NCBI GenBank assembly: GCA_020073215.1
Contig: JAIQFO010000012.1
Location: 1 to 64,000 of the forward strand
Reading direction: 5' to 3'
DNA from: Terriglobia bacterium
GTDB taxonomy: Bacteria; Acidobacteriota; Terriglobia; Terriglobales; Acidobacteriaceae
Length of the DNA stretch: 64,000 bases
Part shown: piece by piece, positions 1-28,371 of the stretch
Layout: each line of letters begins with the position of its first letter
Position numbering within the stretch: the first letter of the stretch is position 1
Translations under genes and position numbers: made by a program
The notes under the pieces: generated by a model
Database searches by the model: none
Seen by the model: the letters and a program-made list of their open reading frames with translations, nothing else
What the model was told of the DNA's origin: nothing

Positions 1-210
1 AATCAGGTACGCCGCGGTGAAGGTGCGGTCGCGGTCGCGTGTGGCGCGCACCTTTTGGATGGGCTGGATGTAGTCGTCCTTATAGCTCCACAGGTCGACC
101 ACCGCCTTGTCGTCAGTCGAGGCGTCGGCGGCGGCATCGTCCTTCTTTTCGGGAGGGCTGTCGGTATTGGCGTTTGCGCGAGCGCCGGTAGCCGACGAAA
201 TCCTTGCCAA
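1..210 (-). pseudogene. S9 family (prolyl oligopeptidase-like) peptidase, internal fragment without a start
   Basis: Reading the minus strand from about position 183 to the window edge gives an Asp/Lys-rich linker followed by VDLWSYKDDYIQPIQKVRA and then RDRDRTFTAAYLI. I recognise this as the conserved segment that lies a few hundred residues into S9 (DPP-IV/prolyl-oligopeptidase-type) secreted peptidases of Acidobacteria. The frame is closed by a TGA at 211-213 with no plausible start, and everything upstream is antisense to the multicopper oxidase. The N-terminal few hundred residues are therefore missing. The frame runs open off the left edge of the window. Either the gene was cut by a rearrangement around 150-210 or the contig is chimeric there. 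The family assignment rests on one short motif, but that motif is distinctive. Confidence 0.6.
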
Positions 211-2029
211 TCAGAACCGGGTCCCCGCTGGGGAACTGGAGAATGGTGTGCTCAAAGTCCAACTCGAATTGCGCCGCGGCGCATGGCGTCCTGAGGCGGA
301 CGACGGCCCGCAGCTTTTCGTGCAGGCCTTCGGTGAAGCGGGACGCGCGGCACAGATTCCCGGGCCGCTGCTGCGCATGCCGGCAGGCACAACCGTCCAC
401 GCGATCGTCACCAACAAGCTGCAGATGAAAGCGACGGTATACGGGCTGAATACGCGTCCCGCCAACGACGAGGCCGGTATTGAGATTCCCGCCGGTGGAA
501 GCCGCGAATTCACTTTTGCCGCGGGCGCACCCGGAACTTATTACTACTGGGCGCGGACGACCCAACCTTTCCAGCGCGGCCCACTGACGATCGCGCGGCC
601 CGCGCAGGCTGACACCCATCTCAACGGCGCCTTTATCGTGGACCCCGCCGGTCCCGTTGCTCCCGACCGCGTATTCGTGATCAACGCAATGTTCGCGCTG
701 GCGGACGTCGTTCACCCCACCTTCGAAGTTGTCACCATCAACGGCAAGTCCTACCCGTACACCGAACCCCTGGAATATACGGCAGGCGATACCATCCGCT
801 GGCGCGTCATTAACCCAAGCTTCGCGGAGCATCCAATGCACCTGCACGGTGCGTTTTACCGGGTGCTGAGTCTGGGGACTTCTGAGACGGACACGGCCTA
901 CGCGGACGCCGACCGGCAGTCGGTCGTGACCCAGGACCTCCAGCCCGGGACCACGATGATGATGGATTGGACGCCCGAACATGCTGGACGCTGGCTGTTC
1001 CACTGCCACTTCCAATTTCACTTCTCTACCGATGAACGTGTGCCGGTGTTCAGCCAGGCGGCAGCGAAACCGAACGGCGACTCTGAACCCTCATGTACAC
1101 AGCACCCGCACCACGATGCGATGCACCACGATGCAATGGGCATCATGAATGACATGGCGGGACTGGTACTCACGATCAACGTGAAAGCATCGTCGTTAGT
1201 AACGCAGCGCGCCTCGGCGGAGACGCCGCGGAAAATCGATCTTGTGATCGAGCCGAACGCGGCGGGCGGGAAGTCGCCCACTTTCTCGTGCTCAGTTCGC
1301 GATGGAAAGAAGATCGTGGCCTCGGAGGACAAAGCTGTGGGCCCGCCCATCGTAGTGACGCGAGGAGAACCAACCGAGATTACGGTGGTGAACCACCTCG
1401 ATGCACCGACCACGATCCACTGGCATGGCTTGGAACTCGACAGCTACTACGATGGCGTGGTGGGAGGCGGCGTGGGCGATCAGGTCACACCCGCCATTCA
1501 GCCGGGCGCGAGCTTTGTGGCCCGCTTCACGCCCAGTCGCGCCGGGACGTTCATTTATCACACGCACGCCGCCGATCCGAACCAACTCTCGGGCGGAGTG
1601 TATGGCGGGTTGATCGTGCTGGAGCCGGGCCAGACGTTTGACGCCGAACACGACAAGTTGCTGGTGATCGGCTCGCGTGACGACTCGTTTCTCACCACGC
1701 GCATCACGGTAAACGGTTCGGAAGAGCTCCGCCCGATGGTGTTCAGCCGGGGCGCAAGGTATCGCCTGCGGCTGATCAACATGGCGCCCAATCTCCCGGC
1801 GAACGTTCAACTCGGCCCCAAGGAGCACCCGGCGACGTGGCTTTACCTTGCCAAGGACGGGGCCAACGTCCCGTCGCGGCTGGCGAAGCCGGAGGATGCT
1901 GTGCTGCATATCGCCTCCGGCGAAACCTATGATTTCGAATTCCAACCGGCGGCGCCGGGCGAGATCCCGTTGCAGATCGAGAACGGCGTCAATCAATCGA
2001 AGCTAATCGGCAAGATCGTCGTGCAGTGA
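107..2029 (+). CDS. Multicopper oxidase with cupredoxin domains in permuted order (N-terminus probably lost)
   Basis: Predicted copper-dependent oxidase of the laccase/bilirubin-oxidase superfamily. Copper-ligand motifs are clear: HPMHLHG at about residue 241, HCHFQFHF at about 298, HWHG at about 437 and HTH at about 484, so all the His sites plus the type-1 Cys are present. In an ordinary three-domain oxidase HWHG/HTH come first and HPMHLHG/HCH last; here the order is reversed. An N-terminal cupredoxin domain (about 60-170) has lost its ligands, and a fourth domain (about 540-640) closes the protein. The frame opens at TTG 107 just after an in-frame TAG at 83. The first 20 or so residues are antisense to a peptidase fragment and lack a convincing signal peptide, so the native start has probably been lost. 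It converges on the cytochrome operon with 30 bp between stops. Confidence 0.8.
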   Translation: MSSVEASAAASSFFSGGLSVLAFARAPVADEILANQNRVPAGELENGVLKVQLELRRGAWRPEADDGPQLFVQAFGEAGRAAQIPGPLLRMPAGTTVHAIVTNKLQMKATVYGLNTRPANDEAGIEIPAGGSREFTFAAGAPGTYYYWARTTQPFQRGPLTIARPAQADTHLNGAFIVDPAGPVAPDRVFVINAMFALADVVHPTFEVVTINGKSYPYTEPLEYTAGDTIRWRVINPSFAEHPMHLHGAFYRVLSLGTSETDTAYADADRQSVVTQDLQPGTTMMMDWTPEHAGRWLFHCHFQFHFSTDERVPVFSQAAAKPNGDSEPSCTQHPHHDAMHHDAMGIMNDMAGLVLTINVKASSLVTQRASAETPRKIDLVIEPNAAGGKSPTFSCSVRDGKKIVASEDKAVGPPIVVTRGEPTEITVVNHLDAPTTIHWHGLELDSYYDGVVGGGVGDQVTPAIQPGASFVARFTPSRAGTFIYHTHAADPNQLSGGVYGGLIVLEPGQTFDAEHDKLLVIGSRDDSFLTTRITVNGSEELRPMVFSRGARYRLRLINMAPNLPANVQLGPKEHPATWLYLAKDGANVPSRLAKPEDAVLHIASGETYDFEFQPAAPGEIPLQIENGVNQSKLIGKIVVQ

Positions 2030-2059: not shown

Positions 2060-4183
2060 TTAAGGTGCCGGGCGCGGCGGGTCGGCTGGAGCGTTGGCAT
2101 TTCCACCCTCATCCTTGTAGTCGGCAGGATCGCTGGGCAGTTCCACCAGCCCGGCCCGCCTCAGCGTGCGGAAATATTCCGGCCGCGAATGGCGGTAATG
2201 GTCGGCCGGAATCTTGCCGTCGAGCCAAGCCGTATCCATGGGATAGACCATGGGATCGAAGATCACCAGATAGAAGTGCCAGATGAGGATAGCGAGGGTC
2301 GCCAGCAGCGCCTCATACCAATGCACGGCGGTGGCCGCGTCGGTCACCCACTTCGGAAAATGCCGCAGCGTGAAATTATTAAACCACAGCAGAAAACCCG
2401 AGACTCCCATGACCACCGTGCCCCACAGAAATGCCCAGTATTCCATCTTCTCCGCATAGTTGAATTTCGCGAACTTCGGCTCCTCTTTCGTAAGGCCAAG
2501 GTTGTAGCGGAAGACGTGCAGCATATCCGTAGCGTCCTTGACGGTCGGGATCATGGCCCACAGGAATGAGCGATCGCGTTTCTTCAGCGCCAGATGCACG
2601 AAGTGGTACAAGGTCGCCAGGATCATGACAACGGCCGCGGCCCGGTGCAACCCGCCGCGCACGCCCACACCCGACTCCCACAGCAGCAGCGGCGTCGACC
2701 ACCAGCTCTTGTACTTCAATGCAAATCCCGTGAACACCAGCGTGGGAAAGCTGGCCATGATGCCCCAGTGCGCAATGCGGAACCACAAGTTCATCCGCAG
2801 TACCATGTCGCCAGATTCCCTCCGCGGCTGCCGCCGAATGAGCTTCGCGAGGAAGTCCACCAGATTGTGCAGCAGCATGAAGGCCAGCGTCGCCGGGATC
2901 AGCACCAGGTACGTCCACCGAATCCATTTCACCACCGGGTGACTCTGCCCGCCGTCGGTCGCCACGTGTACTCGCCCGATGGTGAATTTGGCCTCGACTA
3001 CGCCTTTATGACAATGCCCGCAGGTTGTCCGGAGGTTGGCGGCATTGACGGTCGAGCGTGGGTCACTGGAACGAAGAATCGAGTGCACTCCATGACAAGA
3101 AGCGCAGTTCGCCGCCGTCACTTTCCCTTCCTTGAGGGCCAGCCCGTGATAACTCTGGGCGTAAGAAGGCAGCCGGTCCGCCGGCAGATCGTTGCGCAGG
3201 GCCAAGCGCGGGTCGGCATGGCAACGCCCGCAGGTTTGGGCGGAGACATTCACGGCATTCAACAGCGAGCCCGCACTTTTCGGGTCCGTAATCAGGTGCT
3301 CGCCGTGGCAGTCGACGCAAATCGGCACGTCCCCATTCCCCGCCTTGACCGCTTCCCCGTGGACACTCTCGTTGAACTCCCGGGCAATTTCCTGGTGGCA
3401 TTGCGCGCACGTCTCCGGCACTCTCCAGTGATTGACCTTGGACCGAGAGTCGGTGGCGGGATAAATGTCATGACTGCCGTGGCAACTGGAACAGGTTGCC
3501 GCGTCTTTGCCGAGCGCGACCGCCCGCCCATGCACGCTCTGCTTGTAGGAATCCACTGGGTGCACCACTGGAATTTTGTGGCGCGACAAGAACCCGGGAT
3601 CGCTATGGCATTTGGCGCAAGTATCCGGCAGGTTCCTGCGAAAGACGGTCGAGTCCGCTTGCACGGAGGGTTTCACGGTGTGGATGGGGCCGTGGCAGGA
3701 TGCACATTTGGGCGCGTCGGGATCGCCGTTTTTCGCAGCCTGCCCGTGAATACTGGACTTGAGCTGCTTCACTTCCTGCGCATGACAGTCCGTGCACTTT
3801 CCGGGAATCAGATTTTCCGACGTGGTGAGTTCGTGCACGTTTCCGTGACACGCACCGCACGCTGGTTCGCCGAGCATGGAATGGACGCTGGCGGGGGCTG
3901 ATTTGGCTTCCTCCTCGTGGCAGGTAGAGCACTGCACCTTGGTGATTTTGGCGGGATGCGGAAACTCTTTGATGGCGGTGTGGCAGTCCTTGCAACTGAG
4001 AACCGCATGGGCGCTGGCCGCATGTTTTGCTGGATCGACTGCGATGCTCTTGCCGGCGTCGGATTTCGCTCCCGCCTCGCCATGGCACGCCAGACATTCC
4101 TGGTCGGCGGGAGGCAACGACGAAGCCGACGTCCAGCTCAAAGACAAAGCCAGAAAAACCAAAGCAACCCGAGTCGCGAACAC
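2060..4183 (-). CDS. 13-haem cytochrome c fused to a C-terminal cytochrome b561-like membrane domain
   Basis: Electron-transfer protein with a signal peptide (hydrophobic run ALVFLALSLSW), then 13 CXXCH haem-c motifs over roughly 410 residues, then a membrane domain with about five hydrophobic helices carrying conserved His residues. The latter resembles the cytochrome b subunit of formate dehydrogenases and Ni-Fe hydrogenases. The expected role is quinol-linked electron exchange between the membrane and periplasmic haems. The frame stays open to GTG 4252, but GTG 4183 follows an AGAAGG box by 9 bases and gives a standard signal peptide without overlapping the upstream gene, so I prefer it; GTG 4192 is another choice. 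Last gene of the minus-strand operon. The substrate cannot be read from sequence. Confidence 0.87.
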   Translation of the reverse strand: MFATRVALVFLALSLSWTSASSLPPADQECLACHGEAGAKSDAGKSIAVDPAKHAASAHAVLSCKDCHTAIKEFPHPAKITKVQCSTCHEEEAKSAPASVHSMLGEPACGACHGNVHELTTSENLIPGKCTDCHAQEVKQLKSSIHGQAAKNGDPDAPKCASCHGPIHTVKPSVQADSTVFRRNLPDTCAKCHSDPGFLSRHKIPVVHPVDSYKQSVHGRAVALGKDAATCSSCHGSHDIYPATDSRSKVNHWRVPETCAQCHQEIAREFNESVHGEAVKAGNGDVPICVDCHGEHLITDPKSAGSLLNAVNVSAQTCGRCHADPRLALRNDLPADRLPSYAQSYHGLALKEGKVTAANCASCHGVHSILRSSDPRSTVNAANLRTTCGHCHKGVVEAKFTIGRVHVATDGGQSHPVVKWIRWTYLVLIPATLAFMLLHNLVDFLAKLIRRQPRRESGDMVLRMNLWFRIAHWGIMASFPTLVFTGFALKYKSWWSTPLLLWESGVGVRGGLHRAAAVVMILATLYHFVHLALKKRDRSFLWAMIPTVKDATDMLHVFRYNLGLTKEEPKFAKFNYAEKMEYWAFLWGTVVMGVSGFLLWFNNFTLRHFPKWVTDAATAVHWYEALLATLAILIWHFYLVIFDPMVYPMDTAWLDGKIPADHYRHSRPEYFRTLRRAGLVELPSDPADYKDEGGNANAPADPPRPAP

Positions 4184-4215
4184 TTTCAACACCCTTCTTC
4201 CCAATTCAACCGGCT

Positions 4216-5109
4216 CTACCGGTACGCGAACAACATCGCGTAGATAATCCACAGCACAATGCTGAATCCCACCGCCAGCGCTGCCCAGGCGAAGGCTCGG
4301 ATCGTCTGCGTGACGATCGGCTGATAAGCCTCCTCCATCTTCTCCTCCAGCTTTCCGCTGGCGACCAACTCTTCATATTCTCTGGGCTTGTCCCGTTCCA
4401 ATTCTTCCAGCGGCATGCGCCCGGTGAAGACCGTGATGTCCATGGGAAACTTCTCCGGACGCAAATGGGTATTGAAGAAATGCACGGTAAAGATGAAGCC
4501 TGTGGCCAGCAGCGCCTCGTCGCTGTGAATGATGGTGGCGACGTTGAGGAACCATCCCGGCAAGAACCGCGTGAAGAACACCGGAAACCACAGCGTAAGC
4601 CCGGTGGAACCGATCACCGCGATTCCCCAGAACACCGCGAAATAGTCGAATTTCTCCCAGTAGGTCCAGCGCCCGTAGGCGGGCCGCTCGCCCCGGCCCA
4701 CAAACCACTTCAGCGTGCCCACGAACTCCTTCAGGTCCGTTCGGTTCAGCATCATGCTGCCCGGTCCTAGCAACAGCGAACGCCACGTACCGTGCTCTCT
4801 CTTTTTCAACTTGTAGAGGTCCACCAGGTGGGTGACAAAAACTCCGAACATCACCACGGCCGCGGTGCGGTGAATGTAGCCCGCGTTCTCGAATCCCCCG
4901 AGCAGATGAGAAAGCACCGCCGCCCATTTTGTGTAAGAGAACTTCAGCGTCAACCCAGTCAGCGCCAGGCTCATGAAGCTCACGATCATGCAGATGTGCA
5001 GGATCCGCTGCAGACGGGAGAACCGGACAAACTGACGTTTGGCAAGTGCGCTATTAGGCAAAGGCGGCCTTCCTGCTGGCGGATTCTCCAAAACCTGGCC
5101 GCTAGGCAT
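4216..5109 (-). CDS. Cytochrome b561 / formate dehydrogenase gamma-like membrane subunit
   Basis: About 297 residues with at least four strong hydrophobic segments and helix-borne histidines ([43 protein letters not shown]). This is the pattern of di-haem cytochrome b membrane anchors that oxidise or reduce quinones. It resembles the C-terminal domain of the downstream 13-haem protein, suggesting duplication. Start ATG 5109 is supported by AAGGGGG seven bases upstream and by an 8-base overlap with the stop of the 19-haem gene; a longer open frame to 5169 lacks such a signal. The tight spacing argues for co-translation with its multihaem neighbours. Specificity unknown. Confidence 0.85.
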
Positions 5110-7141
5110 TCGTGTCCCCCTTGTCTGCGGGTTTTTCAAGCTCCGCCGCAAATTTCGCTTCCGCGGCACGCAATTCCTGGCGCATCTGGAAAGATCGGGG
5201 CAGCCAAAGCAGCGTGTGCATCCCGCCCACTACAAAGGTCACCACCAGCAGCGCGGTCATGCCCCAGAAGGTATAAAACAGGAACGGGTACCTTCGCGGG
5301 TCGTGGTGCGTGGCGTGTGTCAGGTATCCGGCGAAGCGCCGGGTCGCGCCTGCATGGCACTTTCCGCAGGTGGCCGCCACGTTGACCCGACTCAGGTGCG
5401 AGCGCGGATCGGTCACCGCCAGCACGTCGTGCGCGCCATGGCAGTCGTAGCACTTCGCCGCTTTGGTGGACCCAAGCTTCGAGACCTTCCCGTGGTAGGT
5501 ATCAAAATAGGTCTTGGCGATTTCGGCGTGGCAGCGCCCGCACGTGTTCATCACGTTCAGCCGGAAGCTGTCCTGGTCCGTGCGGTGGATGGCGTGAGCG
5601 GTGTGGCAATCGTTACAAACCGGCAGTGGCTTGCTGTATCCGCTCACCCGCTTGGCATGGATGCTGTTCTCGAACCGCTCCTCGATGCCGTGGTGGCACC
5701 GGCCGCACGTGTCTGGCACGTTGTTGGCGTTGACGCTCGACGCCGGATCGCTCCGGGGAAGGATCTGGTGAGCGGTGTGGCAACTGGTGCAGGTCGCCGT
5801 CACCGTCAGGCCGTTCTTCAGCAGCCTTCCGTGAATGCTCTCGGTGTAGTTGCTGATGATCTCGTGCTGCAACCCGGTGTAGCGCACTGCAGCCTTCTGC
5901 CCCTCGCGGTGACAGCGCGCGCAAAGCCCGGGAATATTGGTCGCAAAGGTCGACGACTGCGGATCCTGTTTGCCAAGGACGGCATGCGTGCCGTGGCATT
6001 CCTTGCAGGTCGGGGCGTTCGGATCATTCTTGCCGTTAAGTTGTCCGTGGATGCTGGTCGCGTACATCTTGCCAATTTCATCGTGGCAGGAGGTGCAGTC
6101 CACCCCGTGGGAGATCGTCTCGCAAGGCCGCACCCGGGAAGCGTTGACTTCCGAGTGGCACTGGCTGCAGGCAATCTTGTTGTGGCGCGAATGGCTGACT
6201 TCGCCCACGCTCACGTACATGGATTTTCCGTCGCGCGCGCGCTGCAGTTTTTCGTCCGCGTGGCAATGCATGCAGTCGGCATTGGCCATGCCCAGCGAAT
6301 AGAAGACGTTCCGGATCTTATGCGGCTGATGGCAGTCCACGCAGGCCGGCAGCACGTTGGCCTGCTTTTCCCAAAGATCTCCGCGAATGATCTTCTGGTG
6401 GACGGTTTCGATTTGCGAGTGGCATTTTGTGCAGGTGGCGGCGATGTTGCGGCGATTGATCGAGGAACCGGGATCCGTATGCGGCAAGATCAAGTGCGGC
6501 GTGTGGCAGGTGGCGCAGTTCGGGGCCACCGACAGTCCCTTTTTCAGCAACGCTTCGCCATGGATGCTCTCGGAGTAATTCTCCAGAATATTGGCCTGGG
6601 GGATGGGGCGATTGCGCGATACCGGAGTTCCTTCGCGATGGCACCCGCCGCAAACGAAGGGTACTTTCAGCGGCGCCACCGCCGACCGGGGGTCCTTCAC
6701 CGGAACGATGTCGTGGTTGCCGTGACAATTTACACAGTGGGGCGCCAGCGGATCCCCGTGCGCAATCGCCTTCCCGTGCAGCGACCGCGCATGTTGCTCC
6801 TTCTCGGTCGAGTGGCACGTGCCGCAATCCACTCGCGCCAGCGGCGTGTCGTGCGGCAAATCTTTCCCTTGCAGGTCGGCATGGCAGCCCGTGCACCCGA
6901 AGCTGGCATGTACGGAACCCGCAAACTTTTTCCCGTCCACATACAGCGAAACCGTTTTGCCGGCTCGCGTCGTGCTCATGCTCTTGTCGCCGTGGCAGGC
7001 GAGACATTCCGCTCCCGGCGGTTCGGCGGCGCGCGCGGGGCGCTCCGAAAACCGAAGTGAGAACGTCGTGGCGAGGAGTATCGCAACGACTACGCCCAGA
7101 CCGGCACGCCACTTCCTCCGCGCATCCATTGTTTCCGCCAT
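5102..7141 (-). CDS. 19-haem c-type cytochrome, membrane anchored
   Basis: A 679-residue protein with an N-terminal signal/anchor (VVVAILLATTFSL), 19 CXXCH motifs by my count from about residue 46 to 610, and one C-terminal hydrophobic helix (FWGMTALLVVTFVVGGM). Repeated modules read SIHG-x(n)-CXXCHxxH followed by DPxSSxN and CGRCH, the architecture of cytochromes with NrfA/DmsE/doxX-like repeated haem-binding domains. It should sit in the periplasm tethered to the inner membrane and act as a haem wire between the cytochrome b subunit and downstream acceptors. Third gene of the operon, between the NapC-like gene and the cytochrome b gene. Whether it is extracellularly exposed cannot be told; no porin partner gene is seen in the window. 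Confidence 0.87.
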   Translation of the reverse strand: MAETMDARRKWRAGLGVVVAILLATTFSLRFSERPARAAEPPGAECLACHGDKSMSTTRAGKTVSLYVDGKKFAGSVHASFGCTGCHADLQGKDLPHDTPLARVDCGTCHSTEKEQHARSLHGKAIAHGDPLAPHCVNCHGNHDIVPVKDPRSAVAPLKVPFVCGGCHREGTPVSRNRPIPQANILENYSESIHGEALLKKGLSVAPNCATCHTPHLILPHTDPGSSINRRNIAATCTKCHSQIETVHQKIIRGDLWEKQANVLPACVDCHQPHKIRNVFYSLGMANADCMHCHADEKLQRARDGKSMYVSVGEVSHSRHNKIACSQCHSEVNASRVRPCETISHGVDCTSCHDEIGKMYATSIHGQLNGKNDPNAPTCKECHGTHAVLGKQDPQSSTFATNIPGLCARCHREGQKAAVRYTGLQHEIISNYTESIHGRLLKNGLTVTATCTSCHTAHQILPRSDPASSVNANNVPDTCGRCHHGIEERFENSIHAKRVSGYSKPLPVCNDCHTAHAIHRTDQDSFRLNVMNTCGRCHAEIAKTYFDTYHGKVSKLGSTKAAKCYDCHGAHDVLAVTDPRSHLSRVNVAATCGKCHAGATRRFAGYLTHATHHDPRRYPFLFYTFWGMTALLVVTFVVGGMHTLLWLPRSFQMRQELRAAEAKFAAELEKPADKGDTNA

Positions 7142-7160
7142 ATCAAACTTTCGGCCCTGC

Positions 7161-8609
7161 TTACTTCATGCCCACATCGCTAAGCACTTTCGGGTTCGCC
7201 TCCTGCACCGCCAGCAAGCTGTGGCATGCCGAACAATCATTGGTAATGGTCTGGCCATCGGCGCTGGTATGACTGCCATCATGGCAGCGGAAGCAGCCCG
7301 GCGAATCGTTGTGCCCAAGATTGTTCGGGTGCGCGCCCCAGGTCACGCGCATGTCCGGGAAGACATTGCGCAGGTAGATCCTCGCCACCTCATCCCCCGC
7401 TTGTTCCACCACCGTGCGCCGCGTCTCGTAGATCTGCGGGTAACTGGCCCGATAGAAATTGTTGAGCTCTTCCTTGATGCGATGTTCCGCCACATCGCGG
7501 GCGGGATAGTCCACCTTTAGAACCTCCACCGCCTTTTTCCTGATGTAGGGAAGCTCCGGGCTGATCCGCCCGAGCGACATGGCCTTGTCGACCGCGTTGT
7601 CCGGCAGATCGAAGGCGTGTGTGGGCCGGTTGTGGCAATCCACGCAATCCATCACCCGATGCTCTCCCTTATCCAATTGTTCTTTGGTGGGCTTGGCATC
7701 GCTGGAAAGGTATTCGGTGGTCTTCCCCTTATCGTCGGTGTAATACACGGCCGGGATCGTCTGCCGCTCAGCGTCGGTCGAAATGTAGCGGATGCGCGCC
7801 ATGTCGGCGAGGTGCCGCCCGTGGATGCCGACCGACCCCTGCCAGGTGCGTCCGCCAACCTTCAGCAGCAAAACGTCGGTCTGGGGCGTGTTCTTTTCGT
7901 CGTCCTTATAGCTGGTATTCACCAGGAACTTGTCCCCGGTAAAACGCTGCGGCCAGTGGCACTGCTCACAGGTCTCGCGCGCCGGGCGCAGGTACTTGAC
8001 CGGCGAAGGAACCGGACGCGAATAGGTGTGAAACGTCACCGCAAACACCTGTCGCAGGCCGGAAAGCTTCGATCGCACAAACCAATCCGCTCCCGGTCCG
8101 ATATGGCAGGCGACACAGTCGACCCGCGAGTGCGGGGAATTTTGATAGGCGGAGTACTCCGGATCCATCACGGTGTGACAAGTCTTCCCGCAGAAGGTCG
8201 TCGAATCCATGTACTCAACGCCACGGTACGACGCGGTAGCAACAATGAGAAGATTGAGCACGCTCGCCGCGGCCACGTACTCCAAGGTATGCCGCACCAC
8301 GGGCAGCGCCAGGTCGATGGCGGGGAAAACCGCCGGCAGTTCTCCGCGGGCGCGCAAACTCCGCCGCCGGAGCCAGATGCCCAGCGGAATCAGCAGTAAT
8401 CCCAGGACAAAAATGCCGGGCAGGATCAGAAAAACCAGCAGGCCAATATAAGGATGCGGCGGCCCTGGCAAGAAGATGTCATAGAACCAGAAGGCGATAG
8501 TGGTCAGCGCCGTGCTTGTTGTTACTACGGCGCCCGTAAGTGTGATCGGATTCTGCCCGAGAAAATAAATGGGTTGCGCCCGTTCCCGGATGCGTTCTCG
8601 CAGATTCAT
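7161..8609 (-). CDS. NapC/NirT-family hexahaem membrane cytochrome c
   Basis: Predicted quinol dehydrogenase of the NapC/NirT type, passing electrons from the membrane quinol pool to periplasmic cytochromes. Two or three hydrophobic segments near the N-terminus precede a first haem site of CX3CH form (FCGKTCHTVMDPEY), typical of this clade in metal-reducing bacteria as I remember it, then CVACHIGPG, CEQCH, CVDCH, CFRCH and CSACH: six haem sites, more than the four of classical NapC. ATG 8609 (MNLRERIRERAQ) is chosen over a GTG at 8651; GGGGAG lies about 12 bases upstream. Nineteen bases separate it from the 19-haem gene. It is the likely quinol entry point of the module. Confidence 0.87.
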   Translation of the reverse strand: MNLRERIRERAQPIYFLGQNPITLTGAVVTTSTALTTIAFWFYDIFLPGPPHPYIGLLVFLILPGIFVLGLLLIPLGIWLRRRSLRARGELPAVFPAIDLALPVVRHTLEYVAAASVLNLLIVATASYRGVEYMDSTTFCGKTCHTVMDPEYSAYQNSPHSRVDCVACHIGPGADWFVRSKLSGLRQVFAVTFHTYSRPVPSPVKYLRPARETCEQCHWPQRFTGDKFLVNTSYKDDEKNTPQTDVLLLKVGGRTWQGSVGIHGRHLADMARIRYISTDAERQTIPAVYYTDDKGKTTEYLSSDAKPTKEQLDKGEHRVMDCVDCHNRPTHAFDLPDNAVDKAMSLGRISPELPYIRKKAVEVLKVDYPARDVAEHRIKEELNNFYRASYPQIYETRRTVVEQAGDEVARIYLRNVFPDMRVTWGAHPNNLGHNDSPGCFRCHDGSHTSADGQTITNDCSACHSLLAVQEANPKVLSDVGMK

Positions 8610-8737
8610 TGGCAACCGCTGCTCCCCTTTCTTCTTCCTTCTATGCGCCACTCACCCAGACACACTTCACACTTGGCCGCGCTCCCTTCCGCAGCGTTGG
8701 ACAATCCCCTAGTCTCGATGGCAAAAAGTGGCCAGAA

Positions 8738-9061
8738 CTATTTCTTCAGGGTGCGGATGTAAGCCACCAGTCCCTTAATCTCTTCTGGCTTCAGCTTATC
8801 CGCATACTTGGGCATCTTGTTCTTGCCGTTCGTGATGATCCCGGTGAGATCGGCGTCCGACATCTTCTGCACTTCGGCAGTCGTAAAATCGTGCGCGCCC
8901 ATCTTCTTCCCCACTGCCGAACCGGTGCCGTCGGCACCGTGGCACATGGCGCATTTTGATTTGAACAGGTCGGCGCTTTGCGCATTCGCCGACAGGGAGA
9001 GGGTGAGAACAACCGCCAATGCGGTTGCAACGGTCAACACTGCGACGCTAACTTTCTTCAT
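8738..9061 (-). CDS. Small secreted monohaem cytochrome c
   Basis: 107 residues: signal peptide MKKVSVAVLTV...ANA, a single CAMCHGADGTG haem site, and the distal Met region (NKMPKYADKL) of class I cytochromes c, ending in the usual C-terminal helix EEIKGLVAYIRTLKK. A soluble periplasmic electron shuttle. ATG 9061 has GGAG seven bases upstream; an open frame to 9145 would add a non-signal leader and is rejected. First gene of the minus-strand electron-transfer operon, directly downstream of a CRP-type site. Probable partners are the NapC-like and 19-haem proteins, or the convergent multicopper oxidase as electron sink (inference). Confidence 0.88.
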   Translation of the reverse strand: MKKVSVAVLTVATALAVVLTLSLSANAQSADLFKSKCAMCHGADGTGSAVGKKMGAHDFTTAEVQKMSDADLTGIITNGKNKMPKYADKLKPEEIKGLVAYIRTLKK

Positions 9062-9103
9062 CTGCAAGCTCCATTCGAGTTTTGGTTGCCCAACACTGTT
9101 GCA

Positions 9104-9146
9104 ATTTTGAACTCTGCTCGGGCACAGGTCCGTGATCCAAGTCACA
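9104..9146 (-). promoter_or_regulatory. CRP-type palindrome with class II promoter geometry upstream of the cytochrome operon
   Basis: CGTGATCCAAGTCACA at 9131-9146 matches the CRP/FNR-superfamily consensus TGTGA-N6-TCACA at 9 of 10 positions. On the minus strand a -10-like CAAAAT lies at 9109-9104. A start near 9097 would put the palindrome centre at about -41.5, the classical class II activator position. The first gene starts at 9061. The regulator itself is not in the window. Confidence 0.5.
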
Positions 9147-9317: not shown

Positions 9318-9333
9318 CGTGACGTCGATCACA
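9318..9333. promoter_or_regulatory. Second CRP-type palindrome
   Basis: CGTGACGTCGATCACA again fits TGTGA-N6-TCACA at 9 of 10 positions. It lies about 187 bp from the first site, in the roughly 460-bp gap between the cytochrome operon (minus) and the membrane-protein gene at 9523 (plus), so it could serve either. The rest of this gap shows no convincing gene, only a short CCCC-TCTT-GGGG-like hairpin near 9270-9285. Confidence 0.45.
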
Positions 9334-11066: not shown

Positions 11067-13421
11067 ATGTCATCGGGGCCCCTGGTTCCAAGAGGTAACG
11101 ACCCAAGAAGTAACGACCCACGCAGCAACGGTCCACGCCCCGGCGACGGGTTGCGCGAGATCCCCTCTGGCGAACCCGCGGAATTTCTCCGGCCCATCAG
11201 CTCCGCACGCTATAACGTGTTGCCGTCGCAGGAATCCACCCTGCGCGAATACATGCGCGTTCTGATCAAGCGCAAATGGATGGTGATTGGGGTGGTGGCG
11301 GGGATTTTCATGGTGGTCGCCGTCGCCAGCCTGCGCCAGACTCCCATCTACGAAGCAACAGGCCAAATCGTCGTCAACAAGGCCGATTCGAACCTCATTA
11401 CCTTCAAAGACTCTGGGCCGGTGATGGACTACTACGACCCCTCCGATCTCGATACCGAGGTACTCGTCCTGCAGAGCGACCTGCTGGCGCTGCAGGTAAT
11501 CCGGCAACTCAATTTGGACAAACGTCCTGAGTTCGGCGGCCATTCCGATCCGAAACAACCCAACCTGGTCGCCGATCCGCTGCAGATCGATTCCAGCCAC
11601 CTCTCGGCTCTGCTCGGTGGCTTTCGCGGAAACCTCCGCGTCGCTCTGGTTCCCAACACGCGGATCATCGAGATTCATTACACCAGCCCCGATCCTCAGC
11701 TTGCCGCCAGCGCCGTGAATACCCTGGCCGCCACCTATGTCGAGCAGAACTACAAGACCAAGTTCGAATCCACCATGCAAGCCTCCGACTGGCTTTCCAA
11801 ACAGCTGGTGGACTTGCAGATGAAAGTGGAAACTTCACAGGAAAAGCTCGTGCGCTACCAGAAGGAGCACGAGATTCTTGGGACGGACGAAAAGCAAAAC
11901 ATCATCACTGAGAAACTCGGCGAACTCAACCGAGAAATGACGATGGCCGAATCCGACCGCATGCAGAAAGAAGCGGTCTATCGCCAGACCCAGTCCAACG
12001 ACCCGGAAGCAGTAGCGGCGGCCATCGATGCGGGAAGCGGAGGCGTGACTCTTCTGGACAGATTGCGGGATCAGGAAGCCAGCCTTAAGATCCAGGTTGC
12101 CGACCTCAGCACCCGGTTCGGGCCCTCCTACCCGAAGATCACGCAGATCAATAATCAATTGAAAGAGATCGAACACCAGCTTCAGTCGGAAACCAACAAG
12201 GGAGTCGACCATCTCAAGGGGCAGTACCTGGCCGCTTTGCAGCGCGAAGAAATGTTGCGCGGATCCTTTGAGAAGCAAAAACAGGAGGCGAACAAGCTCA
12301 ACGAGAGCGCCATCGAGTACAGCATCCTGAAGCGTGACTTGGACAGCAACCGGACACTCTACGAAGGACTGCTGGAAAAACTGAAAGAAGCGGGAGTCAC
12401 CGCGGGCTTGCGTTCCAATAACTTCCGCATCATTAATGCGGCGCGTGTTCCCACCTCGCCCAGCCAACCCGACATTCCACGCAACCTGACTTTCGCGCTG
12501 GTGCTGGGCGTCATCTCCGGCATCAGCTTGGCTTTCCTGCTCGAGAGCATGGACAACACCGTCCGCACCCCCGAGCAGGCGCAGGCTCTCTCTTGTCTTC
12601 CGTCTCTTGGTATGATCCCGCTCGGTTCGAAGTCCGCGAGCTACGGAGCCACGGGCAAGCGACTGGCTCTCACTGCCTCCCTGGAAGTGGTGGAAACGGT
12701 GACCCAGGCCCGCCCCCAGTCGCAGATGGCCGAGTCGTATCGCGCCCTGCGAACTTCGCTACTGCTCTCGAATCTCGGGGCGCCCCCGAAAGTCATCATG
12801 GTCACCAGCGCCCGTCCGCAGGAAGGCAAAACCACCACCAGCATCAACACCGCCATCGTGCTGGCGCAGAAGGGGGTCCGCGTTCTTTTGATCGATGCCG
12901 ACTTGCGCCGACCCAGCATTCACAAGACTCTGGGCATGGGCCCGCGCAGCGGTCTCAGCAACGTGCTCACCGGAAGCGCCACCCTCCAGCAGACCGTGGC
13001 CACGACTCCCATCCTGCCCAATCTTTTCATTATGCCCGCGGGTACGCCCCCTCCGAATCCGGCCGAGTTGCTGGCTTCCTCCAACATGAGGGACCTGCTC
13101 GAGGAATTGCGCGAACAGTTCGACCACATCGTGATCGATACTCCCCCCACTCTTTCCGTCACCGACGCCGTGGTGCTCTCGCCCCGTGCCGACGCCACCA
13201 TCCTGGTGATTCGTTCCGGCCAGACCACGAAACAGGCGCTGCGCCGCGCCCGCGATATCCTGATGCAAGTCAATGCTCACGTCGCCGGCGTGCTGCTCAA
13301 TGCCGTCGACTTAACCTCTCCCGATTATTACTACTACTACGAGTATCAGGGGAAATACGGCTCCTACTATGAGGATGAGGCTCCTGACGGGGGGAACGAA
13401 GTGGAACCGAAAGCGGTTTGA
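11067..13421 (+). CDS. Polysaccharide co-polymerase / bacterial tyrosine autokinase (Wzc-like)
   Basis: Inner-membrane protein controlling chain length and export of capsular or exopolysaccharide. In order: a short Asn/Pro/Arg-rich repeat (NDPRSN units, residues about 10-25), TM1 near 75-95, a Wzz domain, a long coiled-coil region (about 230-430), the GNVR-type region and TM2 near 470-490. A BY-kinase domain follows: Walker A ARPQEGKTTTS at about 575, Walker A' LLIDADLRRP, Walker B IVIDTPP. The Tyr-rich C-terminal tail (YYYYYEYQGKYGSYYED) is the autophosphorylation cluster. At 784 residues it is the usual length for a fused Wzz-kinase. AGGAG precedes ATG 11067. The downstream TPR and O-antigen-ligase-like genes form the same polysaccharide block. 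Confidence 0.93.
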   Translation: MSSGPLVPRGNDPRSNDPRSNGPRPGDGLREIPSGEPAEFLRPISSARYNVLPSQESTLREYMRVLIKRKWMVIGVVAGIFMVVAVASLRQTPIYEATGQIVVNKADSNLITFKDSGPVMDYYDPSDLDTEVLVLQSDLLALQVIRQLNLDKRPEFGGHSDPKQPNLVADPLQIDSSHLSALLGGFRGNLRVALVPNTRIIEIHYTSPDPQLAASAVNTLAATYVEQNYKTKFESTMQASDWLSKQLVDLQMKVETSQEKLVRYQKEHEILGTDEKQNIITEKLGELNREMTMAESDRMQKEAVYRQTQSNDPEAVAAAIDAGSGGVTLLDRLRDQEASLKIQVADLSTRFGPSYPKITQINNQLKEIEHQLQSETNKGVDHLKGQYLAALQREEMLRGSFEKQKQEANKLNESAIEYSILKRDLDSNRTLYEGLLEKLKEAGVTAGLRSNNFRIINAARVPTSPSQPDIPRNLTFALVLGVISGISLAFLLESMDNTVRTPEQAQALSCLPSLGMIPLGSKSASYGATGKRLALTASLEVVETVTQARPQSQMAESYRALRTSLLLSNLGAPPKVIMVTSARPQEGKTTTSINTAIVLAQKGVRVLLIDADLRRPSIHKTLGMGPRSGLSNVLTGSATLQQTVATTPILPNLFIMPAGTPPPNPAELLASSNMRDLLEELREQFDHIVIDTPPTLSVTDAVVLSPRADATILVIRSGQTTKQALRRARDILMQVNAHVAGVLLNAVDLTSPDYYYYYEYQGKYGSYYEDEAPDGGNEVEPKAV

Positions 13422-13466
13422 GGCAGATGATCGCGTGATCTGACCACCCGATGACCCGATTGTTTT

Positions 13467-14771
13467 ATGGCTATTCCTCTTTCAAAGCGGCGGCGTTGGC
13501 AATTCGCGGCGGGTCTGGTCCTTCTCGCCGGTGTCTATCTCCTGCTTGCGTGCACGGAGTTTGCCGCCAGTGTTTGCGCTTCCCGTGCGGAGTTGTCCTC
13601 GCTGCAACGTGCGGTGCGGCTCTCGCCGGGAAATGCCGACTATCGCCATCGCCTGGGACGCTACTTCGCATTTGTCGCCGGCGATCCTCAGTCCGCTATC
13701 GACGGCCTTCGATCCGCCGTCGCCCTTAACCCCCACGATGCCCGCTATTGGTTCGATCTCGCGGCCGCCTATCAGGTCACCGGCGATCTCGCGGGCCAGC
13801 GATCGGCACTGGATCGCGCCTTGCAGGCCGAGCCCACCGCTCCCGACGTGGCGTGGGAAGCGGCAAACTTCTTCCTCATCGATGGCGATATCGATCGCGC
13901 CCTGCGCGAATTCCACGTGGTCGTCGAGAACGACAATGCGCTGAAGGATGCCGCCCTGCGTGCCTGCTGGCGCGTGCGTCCCGACACCGACGCTCTCCTC
14001 CGCGACGTCGTTCCCCCTCGCGCCGATTCCCTGATTGACTTTCTCGGTTTCTTGAGGGGCAAACAGGAAACCGAGGGCGTCATCAAAACCTGGGACCGTC
14101 TCGCCCAGTTGCACGAGAAATTCCCCAACCGCGATTTGTACGAACAAGTGCGCTATCTCATCGAAATGCGCCGTCCCGACGCCGCCATGTCGGCCTGGAC
14201 CGAAACCGCCGACACTCTTGGCCTCTCCGCTTATCTGCCCACCGACGACAACCTGGTGGTCAACGGCGATTTCAGCCTCGACATCCTGAACGGAGGCTTC
14301 GACTGGAACTACGTCAATCGCACCGGAGTCCGGCCCTTGCTCGATCCCAGCGACTTCCACCAGGGTCGTCGCTCTCTTTCCCTCACCTTCGAAGGTCCCG
14401 GGATCCACGACGCCGGAATTCAACAGCTCATTCCGGTCCGCGGCGCGACCACGTATGACTTTTCCGTCTACTACAAGTCGGCGGACTTTGAGGGCGCAGG
14501 CGGGCCCGAAATCGTCCTGCGCGATGCCTACACCGGCACACCGCTCTATACCAGCGACGCGCTCACCGACGCCGACTTTTGGAAAGAGGTTCATTCCAAG
14601 GTGACGACCCCCGATTCCACCACCCTGCTCCGCCTGGCCATCGAGCGCTTCCCGTCCGGCGCCGCTATCCGCGGCAAGCTTTGGCTCGACAATTTCCAAC
14701 TTTCTCCCGCTGAGCTTCACGACAACGATTCTTCCGGCAATTCTCCAACCGAATCCAAGGACAAACCGTGA
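13467..14771 (+). CDS. TPR protein with a C-terminal carbohydrate-binding-like domain
   Basis: 434 residues: an N-terminal membrane anchor (AAGLVLLAGVYLLLA), TPR-like helices (LSPGNADYRHRLGRYF, LNPHDARYWFDLAAAY, AEPTAPDVAWEAANFF) to about residue 250, then a beta-rich domain opening LVVNGDFSLDILNGGFDWNY that resembles the CBM4/9-type fold often found at the end of exopolysaccharide-locus TPR proteins. It probably scaffolds the export machinery on the periplasmic side. The stop overlaps the next GTG start by 4 bases, so it is translationally coupled to the O-antigen-ligase-like gene. No strong ribosome-binding site is visible before ATG 13467. Confidence 0.75.
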   Translation: MAIPLSKRRRWQFAAGLVLLAGVYLLLACTEFAASVCASRAELSSLQRAVRLSPGNADYRHRLGRYFAFVAGDPQSAIDGLRSAVALNPHDARYWFDLAAAYQVTGDLAGQRSALDRALQAEPTAPDVAWEAANFFLIDGDIDRALREFHVVVENDNALKDAALRACWRVRPDTDALLRDVVPPRADSLIDFLGFLRGKQETEGVIKTWDRLAQLHEKFPNRDLYEQVRYLIEMRRPDAAMSAWTETADTLGLSAYLPTDDNLVVNGDFSLDILNGGFDWNYVNRTGVRPLLDPSDFHQGRRSLSLTFEGPGIHDAGIQQLIPVRGATTYDFSVYYKSADFEGAGGPEIVLRDAYTGTPLYTSDALTDADFWKEVHSKVTTPDSTTLLRLAIERFPSGAAIRGKLWLDNFQLSPAELHDNDSSGNSPTESKDKP

Positions 14772-16141
14772 GCTCCGCCCTGGCAGCGCCAATTGAACCC
14801 GCGCCGCTCGCGAACCTTTCGCGATCGAAGCTAACCCGCAACACGCTGCTGGCCGGCGTGTGCGCCGTGCTCCTGCTCGGGCCCCTGGCTTTTGGAGCGG
14901 TCGAACCCTGGTCCATTTTTGCCTTGGAGGCCTGCGCCACATTGCTGTTGGCGGTTTGGGCGTACCGCCAGTGGATCCGCGGCGAACTCGACCTTCGCGG
15001 CAACCCGCTCTACCTTCCCATGGCAGCCTTCTTTGCCCTCGGGCTCGTGCAGTGGGCGGCTGGAACCACGGCCTACCGGCACGTCACCTATTCTCACTTG
15101 CTGCTCTACGCTGCCTACGGCATGCTGGCGTTCGTCATGACCCAGACCCTGCGCCACTCATCTCAGTTTGGCATCATGGCCAAGGGATTCACGGTGTACG
15201 GGGCGGTCGTCGCCTTGTTCGCGGTGGTGCAGGGGATGGCGCCGAACGGAAAGATTTACTGGATGCGGACCCTCGAGCAGGGTGGCAACATTTATGGACC
15301 CTACGTCAATCACAATCATTACGCCGGCCTGATGGAGATGCTCACCCCTTTCCCGCTGGTGCTGGCCGCAACCCGCCTTACCAGTGGCAACCGCAAGCTT
15401 GCCGTGGCGGGTATCGCCGCCCTGATGGCGGCCAGTATTTTTCTTTCCGGCTCGCGCGGAGGCATGGCCGCGTTCGTGGCGCAGATGGTGGTGCTCAGCG
15501 TCATTTTGGTTCGCAAGCGCGACGGAAGTTGGAAACAGCCCCTCATGCTCGGCGCGTTCCTGGCGATGGTCATCGTCTTTCTCTTCTGGATGGGCAACAA
15601 CGAACTTACCCGCCGCCTCGCCAGCATTCACTCCGAAGCCCGCGAAGAGATCAGCGGAGGAGTTCGCCTCACCATTGATCGCGACTGCTTGCGCATGTTG
15701 ATCAAGCGCCCCTTGCTCGGTTGGGGACTGGGCGCCTTTCCCATCGTCTATCCGGAATTTCGCAGTTTCTACACCACCTTCTTCGTGAACCAGGCCCACA
15801 ATGATTATCTGCAGTTGCTGGTCGAGACCGGCTTGGCTGGATTCTCCATCGCGGCCTGGTTTCTGGTGCTGGTATTCCGCCAGGCAGCGGCCAAGCTTAG
15901 GAATGATGACTGGACCGAGAACGCCAGCGGCGCGCTGACCGTGGCCGCGCTGCTCGGCTGCGTGGGAATCCTGGTGCACAGCTTCGTCGATTTCAATCTT
16001 CAGATCCCGGCAAACGCGGCGCTATTTTACGTGCTGTGCGCCCTGGCCGCCTCCTCACCCCTCCAGGAATCTCAGCGCCGCCGCGTCCTTCGCCGCCGCA
16101 GTTCGATCGCGGAGTCTCACCCGGAAACCGCGGCGTCCTGA
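14768..16141 (+). CDS. O-antigen ligase / polymerase-like membrane protein (Wzy_C)
   Basis: 457 residues with about 11 hydrophobic segments and the Wzy_C hallmark loop: FLSGSRGGM, then LLGWGLGAFPIVYPEFRSFY and NQAHNDYLQLLVETGLAG. These match the periplasmic loop and H-N-D-Y-L motif of WaaL/Wzy-type enzymes that join or polymerise glycan repeat units. The start is the GTG that overlaps the previous stop (GTGA). The basic tail RRRVLRRRSS is cytoplasmic. With the autokinase it suggests a Wzy-dependent exopolysaccharide system, although the Wza exporter and Wzx flippase are not in the window. Confidence 0.88.
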   Translation: MSSALAAPIEPAPLANLSRSKLTRNTLLAGVCAVLLLGPLAFGAVEPWSIFALEACATLLLAVWAYRQWIRGELDLRGNPLYLPMAAFFALGLVQWAAGTTAYRHVTYSHLLLYAAYGMLAFVMTQTLRHSSQFGIMAKGFTVYGAVVALFAVVQGMAPNGKIYWMRTLEQGGNIYGPYVNHNHYAGLMEMLTPFPLVLAATRLTSGNRKLAVAGIAALMAASIFLSGSRGGMAAFVAQMVVLSVILVRKRDGSWKQPLMLGAFLAMVIVFLFWMGNNELTRRLASIHSEAREEISGGVRLTIDRDCLRMLIKRPLLGWGLGAFPIVYPEFRSFYTTFFVNQAHNDYLQLLVETGLAGFSIAAWFLVLVFRQAAAKLRNDDWTENASGALTVAALLGCVGILVHSFVDFNLQIPANAALFYVLCALAASSPLQESQRRRVLRRRSSIAESHPETAAS

Positions 16142-27946: not shown

Positions 27947-28371
27947 CAGGCGGCCTTGCCCATGGTCTGCTCGACCACGGAAATAAATTCCTGCACCCGA
28001 AACGGCTTTTCCACGCAGGGCGCGCCGGTGCGGCGCAGCGTAGCAGCGGTTTCCTCGTTGGCCATATCTCCGGTGATGAACACCAGGCGCGAGGCCAGTT
28101 CGGGACGATGGGCGGCGATCCAGGCATAGACCTGGGCGCCATCGACGCCGCCCGGGGTGCGCATGTCGGAGACGACGCCGTGAAAAGTGCCTTCCGCCAG
28201 CAGGCGCAAGGCTTCGGCCCCGGATTCGGTCGGAACCACGGAATATCCGTGGCCCTCGAGTACGGCCCGTACCAAAGCCATGACCGCCGGTTCATCTTCA
28301 ATCAAAAGCACAGGCGCAGTAGCGGACTTCGTTCCAGTCATAGTTCCTGTCTTGGTTGCTGGCTGGGTCAT
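27946..28371 (-). CDS. Single-domain response regulator receiver
   Basis: 141 residues: a low-complexity Thr/Lys leader, then a full receiver: VLLIEDEPAV acidic pocket, VVSDMRTPGGVDG phospho-Asp, FITGD and CVEKPF with the conserved Lys. There is no output domain, so it works as a phosphate carrier or competitor between the giant kinase and the NtrC-type regulator. The start overlaps the kinase stop (ATGA) and its stop overlaps the NtrC gene start; the three are translationally coupled. Confidence 0.92.

What the first reader, a model, noticed from the sequence alone, without database searches (positions are those of the whole stretch)
2060..9146. Five-gene multihaem electron-transfer operon (about 39 haem-c sites) under a CRP-type site
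The operon combines a monohaem cytochrome, a six-haem NapC/NirT protein, a 19-haem cytochrome, a cytochrome b and a 13-haem cytochrome fused to a second cytochrome b. Two quinone-type membrane modules plus NapC in one operon means at least three possible contact points with the quinol pool, which is not the layout of any respiratory complex I can name. No terminal reductase or porin is encoded with it; the convergent multicopper oxidase is the only oxidase nearby.
Basis: partly seen in the sequence, partly recalled or inferred. Interest (0 to 1): 0.78.

Follow-up and report, generated by a model that had tools for sequence, protein, structure and literature searches.

The report
Three quinol oxidases in one operon
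A soil bacterium of the acidobacteria carries, in one operon, the kinds of membrane cytochrome that metal-breathing bacteria use to push respiratory electrons out of the cell, which suggests that these sulfur-cycling microbes may also breathe iron or humus.

Summary
In detail: five co-directional genes (- strand, 2060-9145) with 38 CXXCH and one CX3CH, 39 haem-c sites. The layout can be named. D meets the published marks of ImcH. A is a CbcL/MtrH/MtoC-type fusion. C+B is a second CbcL-type module split into two genes; some relatives carry it fused. So three quinol-oxidising modules of the kind used for extracellular electron transfer (EET) stand with a monohaem cytochrome. A and CB are old paralogues, each found in at least four phyla. 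A and D co-vary more than either does with C. In 19 of 151 relatives' loci a decahaem and a large haem-free gene lie nearby; this genome has a 69/71% identical pair on another contig. The Crp-type site is conserved; the multicopper oxidase is not. The genome has dsrA and a likely dsrB. A 2018 paper reported no known metal-reduction genes in such peat acidobacteria (one putative exception), yet its MAG SbA1 carries this cluster. Best reading: redox-graded EET respiration (0.72), untested; Geobacter sequences could not be compared. New variant of a known kind.

The parts
8738..9145 (-). E: monohaem cytochrome c, probably periplasmic (probable start at 9061, with a signal peptide)
   Evidence: 1 CXXCH; Cytochrome_CBB3 1e-14, c6-like; start judged from sequence
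7161..8651 (-). D: ImcH-type NapC/NirT inner-membrane quinol oxidase, 5 CX2CH + 1 CX3CH
   Evidence: Cytochrom_NNT 7.8e-10; CX3CH invariant in 17 aligned sequences; three predicted helices 35-60, 67-102, 117-148 (low confidence); profile finds NrfH 2j7a, E 1.1e-4
5102..7141 (-). C: 19-haem cytochrome c with a C-terminal membrane helix; c half of a split CbcL-type module
   Evidence: one chain with B in some relatives
4216..5169 (-). B: FdnI/HydC-type cytochrome b; b half of the split CbcL-type module
   Evidence: Ni_hydr_CYTB 5.7e-5 (below cut-off), formate-DH-gamma 1.4e-8; the conserved His set of A is kept
2060..4252 (-). A: CbcL/MtrH/MtoC-type fusion, 13-haem domain + cytochrome b (residues about 439-700)
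   Evidence: H495/H536/H644/H659 align on H18/H57/H155/H169 of FdnI 1kqf_C; Foldseek best hit 1kqf_C, E 2e-4, on a model of low confidence
9131..9146 (-). Crp/Fnr-type site TGTGACTTGGATCACG
   Evidence: 9 of 10 consensus bases; best match at least 9/10 in 24 of 31 promoter regions (28 distinct) against 0.3% of shuffles
9318..9333 (-). second Crp/Fnr-type site TGTGATCGACGTCACG
   Evidence: 9 of 10

Best explanation
The operon encodes the inner-membrane entry to an extracellular electron transfer chain in a facultatively anaerobic acidobacterium. Three quinol oxidases, an ImcH-type (D), a fused CbcL-type (A, 13 haems) and a split CbcL-type (C+B, 19 haems), take electrons from the menaquinol pool into periplasmic haem wires. 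The small cytochrome E carries them to a DmsE/MtrA-type decahaem cytochrome in an outer-membrane protein (encoded elsewhere in this genome, near the cluster in some relatives), and so to Fe(III) or humic acceptors. Having three oxidases lets the cell match the quinol-oxidising step to the redox potential of the acceptor, as ImcH, CbcL and CbcBA do in Geobacter. A Crp/Fnr-type regulator probably controls it. Shown: families, haem counts, conserved histidines, neighbourhoods, conserved promoter site, a decahaem pair in the genome. Inferred: electron direction, menaquinol, potential grading, contacts between partners, regulation, acceptor.
For: D meets the published ImcH marks. A and CB share one set of membrane-part histidines, in 64 of 64 A rows and 42-43 of 43 CB rows chosen for the alignment; four of these align on FdnI's haem ligands in A (that they are the ligands is recalled). 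A decahaem lies near A in 20 of 151 loci, on the same strand in 17, and has a large haem-free gene beside it in 19; both decahaems tested pass the DmsE-family cut-off (267 and 270 against 192 bits); a 69/71% identical pair is in this genome. ImcH and CbcL-type matches co-occur: 138 of 191 genomes with a CbcL-type match have ImcH, against 36 of 205 without. The Crp-type site is conserved; a Crp/Fnr gene lies in 34 of 183 stretches scanned, duplicates included, and an 85% identical one is in this genome. Relatives include Geothrix loci; PMC6295460 names Geothrix fermentans as an Fe(III) reducer with an ImcH homologue.
Against: No experiment, and no direct comparison with Geobacter ImcH, CbcL or CbcBA sequences. 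The decahaem pair is on another contig, and its own promoter lacks the Crp-type site (best 7 of 10). The large protein of this genome's pair is not shown to be a barrel: PF11854 matches 2 of 11 family members at best 8.8e-4 and not this one; hhalign with the firm MtrB-type set gave probability 9%. 36 of 174 ImcH genomes have no CbcL-type match at 1e-40, and 53 of 191 CbcL-type genomes have no ImcH. 18 of 87 A loci have neither D nor CB nearby, and 74 of these 87 have no decahaem in the held stretch.
Confidence: 0.72

Rival explanations
1. Quinol:cytochrome c reductase for aerobic or micro-oxic respiration: the modules reduce the monohaem cytochrome E, which feeds a haem-copper oxidase; no electrons leave the cell.
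For: E is a cbb3/c6-type small cytochrome and is the first gene; the genome has two haem-copper oxidase genes over the cut-off; related MAGs encode oxygen respiration (PMC6018796 passages).
Against: The oxidase genes are on another contig (C31). [quoted passage not shown] Where a recurrent neighbour was seen it was a DmsE-type decahaem with a large haem-free gene; oxidases were not searched for in every neighbourhood. E-type genes also stand beside such decahaem pairs with no A, B, C or D match in the held stretch (L230, L233, L234; other quinol enzymes there were not ruled out).
Confidence: 0.12
2. The same machinery run backwards: Fe(II) or another extracellular donor reduces the quinone pool (MtoC-like).
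For: CbcL/MtrH/MtoC homologues occur in both Fe(III) reducers and Fe(II) oxidisers, and no feature tells them apart (PMC6295460 abstract and section 10).
Against: ImcH has so far been implicated in quinol oxidation only (PMC6295460 section 11), and ImcH co-varies with A (Mantel 0.84 over 36 loci). The genome carries dsrA, and related dsrAB MAGs are described as degrading carbohydrates (passages).
Confidence: 0.08
3. All five gene products form one fixed 39-haem complex.
For: One operon; 21 of 151 loci have A13 + C19 + B + D near each other, eight of them in other phyla and one unclassified (C and B fused, or D on the other strand, in some).
Against: Modules come apart: D+CB 25, D only 32, CB only 12, neither 18 of 87. 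C correlates less with A and D (0.48, 0.52) than they do with each other (0.84). E is within 6 kb of A in 25 of 87.
Confidence: 0.1

Closest known systems
ImcH (Geobacter sulfurreducens), NapC/NirT family
   Same: Three N-terminal TM helices, atypical CX3CH next to them, several CX2CH, about 500 aa (PMC6295460 section 11; D)
   Different: Geobacter ImcH has six CX2CH + CX3CH; D has five + CX3CH. In a tree of 56 of 86 D-type proteins, the five-CX2CH forms are one side of a 100/100 branch and the forms with six or more the other.
CbcL/MtrH/MtoC family
   Same: Multihaem domain fused to a di-haem b-type membrane domain (PMC6295460 section 10; PMC9129911 passages)
   Different: 13 haems in A, against nine in CbcL; encoded beside ImcH and a second, split copy
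CbcBA (Geobacter sulfurreducens)
   Same: An inner-membrane cytochrome needed near the energetic limit (PMC9129911 and PMC12307469 passages); that it is a b-type and a c-type protein from two genes is recalled. C+B is likewise two genes.
   Different: 19 haems in C; sequence kinship to CbcBA could not be tested
Mtr/porin-cytochrome conduits (MtrA/DmsE + MtrB/PioB)
   Same: A decahaem with a large haem-free protein near the cluster in relatives; in L146 the latter is MtrB_PioB, 2.5e-60
   Different: Not in the window; this genome's pair is on contig C107, and its large protein matched no Pfam family

Membership tests
ImcH | three N-terminal transmembrane helices | tested here: met
   model helices 35-60, 67-102, 117-148 (mean pLDDT 62.7, so low confidence); a crude hydropathy count gave 1-4 in relatives
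ImcH | atypical CX3CH next to the membrane domain | tested here: met
   CGKTCH at 154; C154, G155, C158, H159 invariant in 17 sequences
ImcH | 5 to 9 CX2CH motifs; 495-519 aa in the Geobacter group | tested here: met
   5 CX2CH, 496 aa as called from GTG; published range from PMC6295460
ImcH | sequence kinship to Geobacter ImcH | not testable with these tools
   no Geobacter sequence reached: record CP001090 not held; none of the 80 loci kept by the genome scan is Geobacter
ImcH | quinol oxidation | not testable with these tools
   needs biochemistry
CbcL/MtrH/MtoC (protein A) | N-terminal multihaem c domain with 3 to 23 CX2CH, 416-1034 aa | tested here: met
   13 CX2CH, 730 aa; ranges from PMC6295460
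CbcL/MtrH/MtoC (protein A) | six (in a few, four or five) TM motifs with conserved histidines | tested here: met
   five C-terminal helices plus one N-terminal (mean pLDDT 65.7, so low confidence); H429, H462, H495, H536, H550, H644, H659 in 64 of 64 chosen rows
CbcL/MtrH/MtoC (C+B) | c and b domains in one chain | tested here: not met
   two genes in the window; one chain in, among others, L081, L106, L117, L143, L172, L184, L185. Works like it; filed as a split relative.
CbcBA | sequence kinship to CbcB and CbcA | not testable with these tools
   no Geobacter sequence reached
Mtr-type outer-membrane conduit in the operon | porin and decahaem in the operon | tested here: not met
   absent in the window; a decahaem with a large haem-free gene on contig C107 in this genome

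The most novel reading that the evidence does not exclude
ImcH and the CbcL-type fusion are not independent, potential-specific routes here but one inherited functional unit, perhaps a heteromeric quinol oxidase, to which a second CbcL-type module (CB) is added or removed. Peat acidobacteria known for dsrAB sulfur metabolism would use it to respire Fe(III) or humus when sulfate and oxygen are short, an ability that the literature seen calls unclear or lacking for them.
Probability: 0.3. Interest if true: 0.8.

Novelty: new variant of a known kind. Interest (0 to 1): 0.62.

Why it matters
In Geobacter the inner-membrane quinol oxidases serve different redox potentials (passages). Having ImcH and two CbcL-type modules as one cassette, found with 13 and 19 haems in A and C in loci of Acidobacteriota, Ignavibacteriota, Bacteroidota and one Gemmatimonadota, gives a natural system for asking whether they work apart or together. 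It also makes an open question testable. PMC6018796 (passages) says that known metal-reduction genes were absent from its dsrAB peat MAGs, apart from a putative complex in SbA2, and that it is unclear whether such bacteria respire Fe(III). Its MAG SbA1 carries C19-B-A13-D6 (L082) and a related decahaem, and this window's genome has dsrA, a likely dsrB and the same set of parts. Fe(III) and humus respiration in peat competes with methane production (recalled).

Tried and rejected
Rejected: the multicopper oxidase as partner (tblastn hits only in copies of the same locus). Rejected: one fixed five-protein complex. Rejected: chance CXXCH. Considered and left open: CbcBA identity of CB. Led nowhere: plasmid search with A (no match); Foldseek of the A model beyond FdnI (model confidence low); sigma-70 and terminator scans at or below chance level; hhalign of the two sets of large proteins (probability 9%). 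Expected but not found: a Crp-type site before the stand-alone decahaem pair of this genome (best 7 of 10).

Limits of the counts: gene maps come from a simple ORF picker in my scripts, not from annotation. Loci were found through A, so adjacency rates are conditional on A; the 60 phylum regions fetched were chosen by me from the list, strong hits spread over genera. The genome scan kept the best 80 of 363 relatives. Eight near-identical loci were dropped before the count of 151. The 31 promoter regions include three pairs from the same record (L032/L064, L034/L065, L036/L070): 28 distinct, 21 with at least 9 of 10; shuffles were single-base. The Fisher test ignores kinship, and profile A1 also matches CB. 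The trees and histidine counts use chosen rows: 64 A and 43 CB, 56 of 86 D. Mantel values mix fused and split, 11- to 23-haem C proteins; within the family set of 16 loci all three pairs correlate above 0.9. Paper searches list only the best hits: 15 of 549, 12 of 530 (68), 20 of 55 (69), 12 of 40 (72), 12 of 18 (73).
Full report
What is there. The five genes run on the - strand: E (8738-9145), D (7161-8651), C (5102-7141), B (4216-5169), A (2060-4252). They hold 1, 6 (5 CX2CH + 1 CX3CH), 19, 0 and 13 haem-c sites, 39 in all; 1000 shuffles of each protein never gave more than 3 CXXCH. Family searches give a monohaem cytochrome c (E), NapC/NirT (D), multihaem c (C and A), and a formate-dehydrogenase-gamma-like cytochrome b (B and the C-terminus of A).

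The organism. The window is contig C50 of a 5.6 Mb genome. Contigs of genomes that the tool calls same genus match, by length, named records of acidobacterial MAGs: G009:C9 with PLUW01000123.1 (bog_443), G017:C84 with PLIC01000233.1 (bog_202), G020:C15 with JANXZM010000029.1, G010:C154 with JAIQFZ010000022.1. Other close hits are titled Candidatus Sulfotelmatobacter (L067, L069). The genome has dsrA at 583 bits over a cut-off of 392.85, with a second, weaker dsr-type match directly after it that I take as dsrB; 4 of 25 genomes in that search pass the cut-off. It has two haem-copper oxidase genes over the cut-off.

D is ImcH-like. PMC6295460, section 11, read in full, gives the marks: three TM motifs at the N-terminus, an atypical CX3CH next to them, 5-9 CX2CH, and 495-519 aa in the Geobacter group. 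D has CGKTCH at 154, five CX2CH and 496 aa. In 17 aligned sequences C154, G155, C158 and H159 never vary. The model, of low confidence (mean pLDDT 62.7), has three long N-terminal helices. The profile finds the quinol dehydrogenase NrfH among solved structures (E 1.1e-4).

A and C+B are CbcL-type. PMC6295460 section 10 (read in full) and PMC9129911 (passages) describe CbcL as a multihaem periplasmic domain fused to a six-helix, di-haem b membrane domain. A has this build. Its H495, H536, H644 and H659 fall on H18, H57, H155 and H169 of E. coli FdnI (that these are the haem ligands is recalled), and Foldseek ranks FdnI first (E 2e-4; model mean pLDDT 65.7). C ends in a membrane helix and B supplies the rest, so C+B looks like the same build cut between helix 1 and helix 2. 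In some relatives C and B are one chain (among others L081, L106, L117, L143, L172, L184, L185). The conserved histidines of the membrane part are present in 64 of 64 A rows and 42 or 43 of 43 CB rows chosen for the alignment. In a tree of these 107 membrane parts, A and CB are the two sides of one 100/100 branch, and each side holds Acidobacteriota, Bacteroidota, Ignavibacteriota and Gemmatimonadota. I read them as old paralogues. C+B fails the one-chain mark of the CbcL family, so I call it a split relative that works like it.

How the modules combine. From genome searches I mapped 159 loci with an A gene, 151 after dropping near-copies; 87 have at least 5 kb on both sides. Of these 87, 25 have both D and CB near, 32 D only, 12 CB only, 18 neither. 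Twenty-one of 151 loci have A13, C19, B and D near each other: twelve in Acidobacteriota (the window among them), eight in other phyla, one unclassified. In the window's genus there are four layouts: E-D-C-B-A, E-D-A, C-B-A-D and A-D. Window-type and C-B-A-D loci share C at about 70% identity but A at about 44% and D at about 40%. ImcH-type proteins with five CX2CH and those with six or more are the two sides of a 100/100 branch (56 rows), and A follows D: over 36 loci the distance correlation is 0.84 for A-D, 0.48 for A-C and 0.52 for D-C. Within the family set of 16 all three exceed 0.9, because two blocks dominate. I read this as A and D moving as a pair around CB. PMC12133095 (passages) names ImcH and CbcL homologues of D. 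acetexigens under consecutive protein accessions, which hints that they are neighbours there too (my inference). Across 396 genomes of the phylum, 138 of 191 with a CbcL-type match also have ImcH, against 36 of 205 without (Fisher p 6e-29, not corrected for kinship). Against a tight coupling: those 36, and the 53 with CbcL-type matches but no ImcH.

The way out of the cell. In 20 of 151 loci (13 of the 87) a decahaem cytochrome lies within 8 kb of A, on the same strand in 17; 19 of the 20 have a large haem-free gene next to it. So most A loci show no such pair in the held stretch. Both decahaems given to NCBIfam (L042, L068) pass the DmsE-family cut-off. In L146 the large protein is MtrB/PioB (2.5e-60); in L042 and L068, closer to the window's, it is only weakly like a known family. 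The window's genome has this pair on contig C107: the decahaem is 69% and the large protein 71% identical to L042's, where they lie directly before C-B-A-D. Whether that large protein is a barrel is not settled: 2 of 11 family members match PF11854 at best 8.8e-4, and hhalign to the firm MtrB-type set gave 9%. SbA1 has a decahaem 59% identical over residues 47-311.

Regulation. In 31 promoter regions before E (28 distinct) the best Crp-type match was perfect in 17 and 9 of 10 in 7; shuffles gave 9 in 0.3% and never 10. The window has two 9/10 sites, 9131-9146 and 9318-9333. A Crp/Fnr gene lies in 34 of 183 stretches scanned, duplicates included; the one flanking A in L031 has an 85% identical match in this genome on contig C106. 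Of 30 decahaem promoters, 6 have a perfect site and 5 a 9/10 site, but this genome's stand-alone pair has none (best 7 of 10), which counts against one shared regulon here.

Function. Most likely the operon feeds menaquinol electrons through three oxidases of different driving force into an extracellular chain. In Geobacter, ImcH serves acceptors above about -0.1 V, CbcL those below it, and CbcBA is needed from about -0.21 V downwards (PMC9129911 and PMC12307469 passages). Mapping D, A and CB on these windows is an inference; CB need not be CbcBA. The rivals are an aerobic quinol:cytochrome c reductase, reverse flow, and one fixed complex; the evidence on each is in its field.

Against the literature. 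I searched the held papers for ImcH/CbcL/CbcBA, for acidobacterial and ignavibacterial multihaem clusters, and for Sulfotelmatobacter and saw no description of this combined operon in what was listed or read; several searches list only part of their hits, and figures are not held, so Figures 5 and 7 of PMC6295460 may draw one. Table 1 of that paper lists 19 ImcH and 2 CbcL-type homologues in Acidobacteria (passage). PMC6018796 (passages) states that known metal-reduction genes were absent from its peat MAGs, apart from a putative complex in SbA2, and that it is unclear whether DsrAB acidobacteria respire Fe(III). SbA1 (L082) carries C19-B-A13-D6, and SbA5 (L124) C11-B-A11. PMC8528874 (passages) already proposes metal-oxide respiration by multihaem cytochromes and barrel proteins for marine Acidobacteriota of the sulfur cycle, PMC3669403 (passages) proposed acidobacterial Fe reduction in peat from decahaem genes, and PMC11748539 (passages) reports expressed EET genes in Holophaga and Geothrix. 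The ecological idea is therefore not new; the quinol-side cassette and its presence in the peat dsrAB lineage are what I did not find in print. In PMC10591310 the terms 'extracellular electron', 'metal reduction' and 'multiheme' do not occur in the main text; the passages of PMC10564751 that I saw do not mention EET.

Noticed in passing
window 107-2029 (+): Multicopper oxidase-like gene convergent with the operon, close to the contig end; its best Cu-oxidase_2 stretch (208-308) lies before its best Cu-oxidase_3 stretch (401-507). Found in no other locus held except copies of the window's own.
   Followed up: partly
G000:C96, L053 9973-11250 and L058: The same genome has a nonahaem cytochrome near a weak cytochrome-b match; in L228 a cytochrome-b-like ORF (judged by eye) and a nonahaem gene stand before a decahaem pair, perhaps a fourth quinol module of bc type.
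   Followed up: no
L110 17099-20385: In a Bacteroidota relative the A-C-B-D cluster is followed by a cytochrome b6/bc-type gene overlapping an 11-haem gene, and then a 4-haem gene; 11- and 4-haem genes also follow in L102, L104 and L130.
   Followed up: partly
window 11067-16141 (+): Exopolysaccharide-type genes: Wzz/tyrosine-kinase-like protein (11067-13421) and O-antigen ligase-like protein (14768-16141).
   Followed up: no
window 28368-32240 (-) and 36392-38743 (+): Large PAS/GAF histidine kinase and a CheA-like kinase.
   Followed up: no
G000:C33 30348-31607, G000:C8 1651-1911, G000:C81 13931-14188: Other Paired_CXXCH multihaem genes of the genome, possible further EET parts.
   Followed up: no
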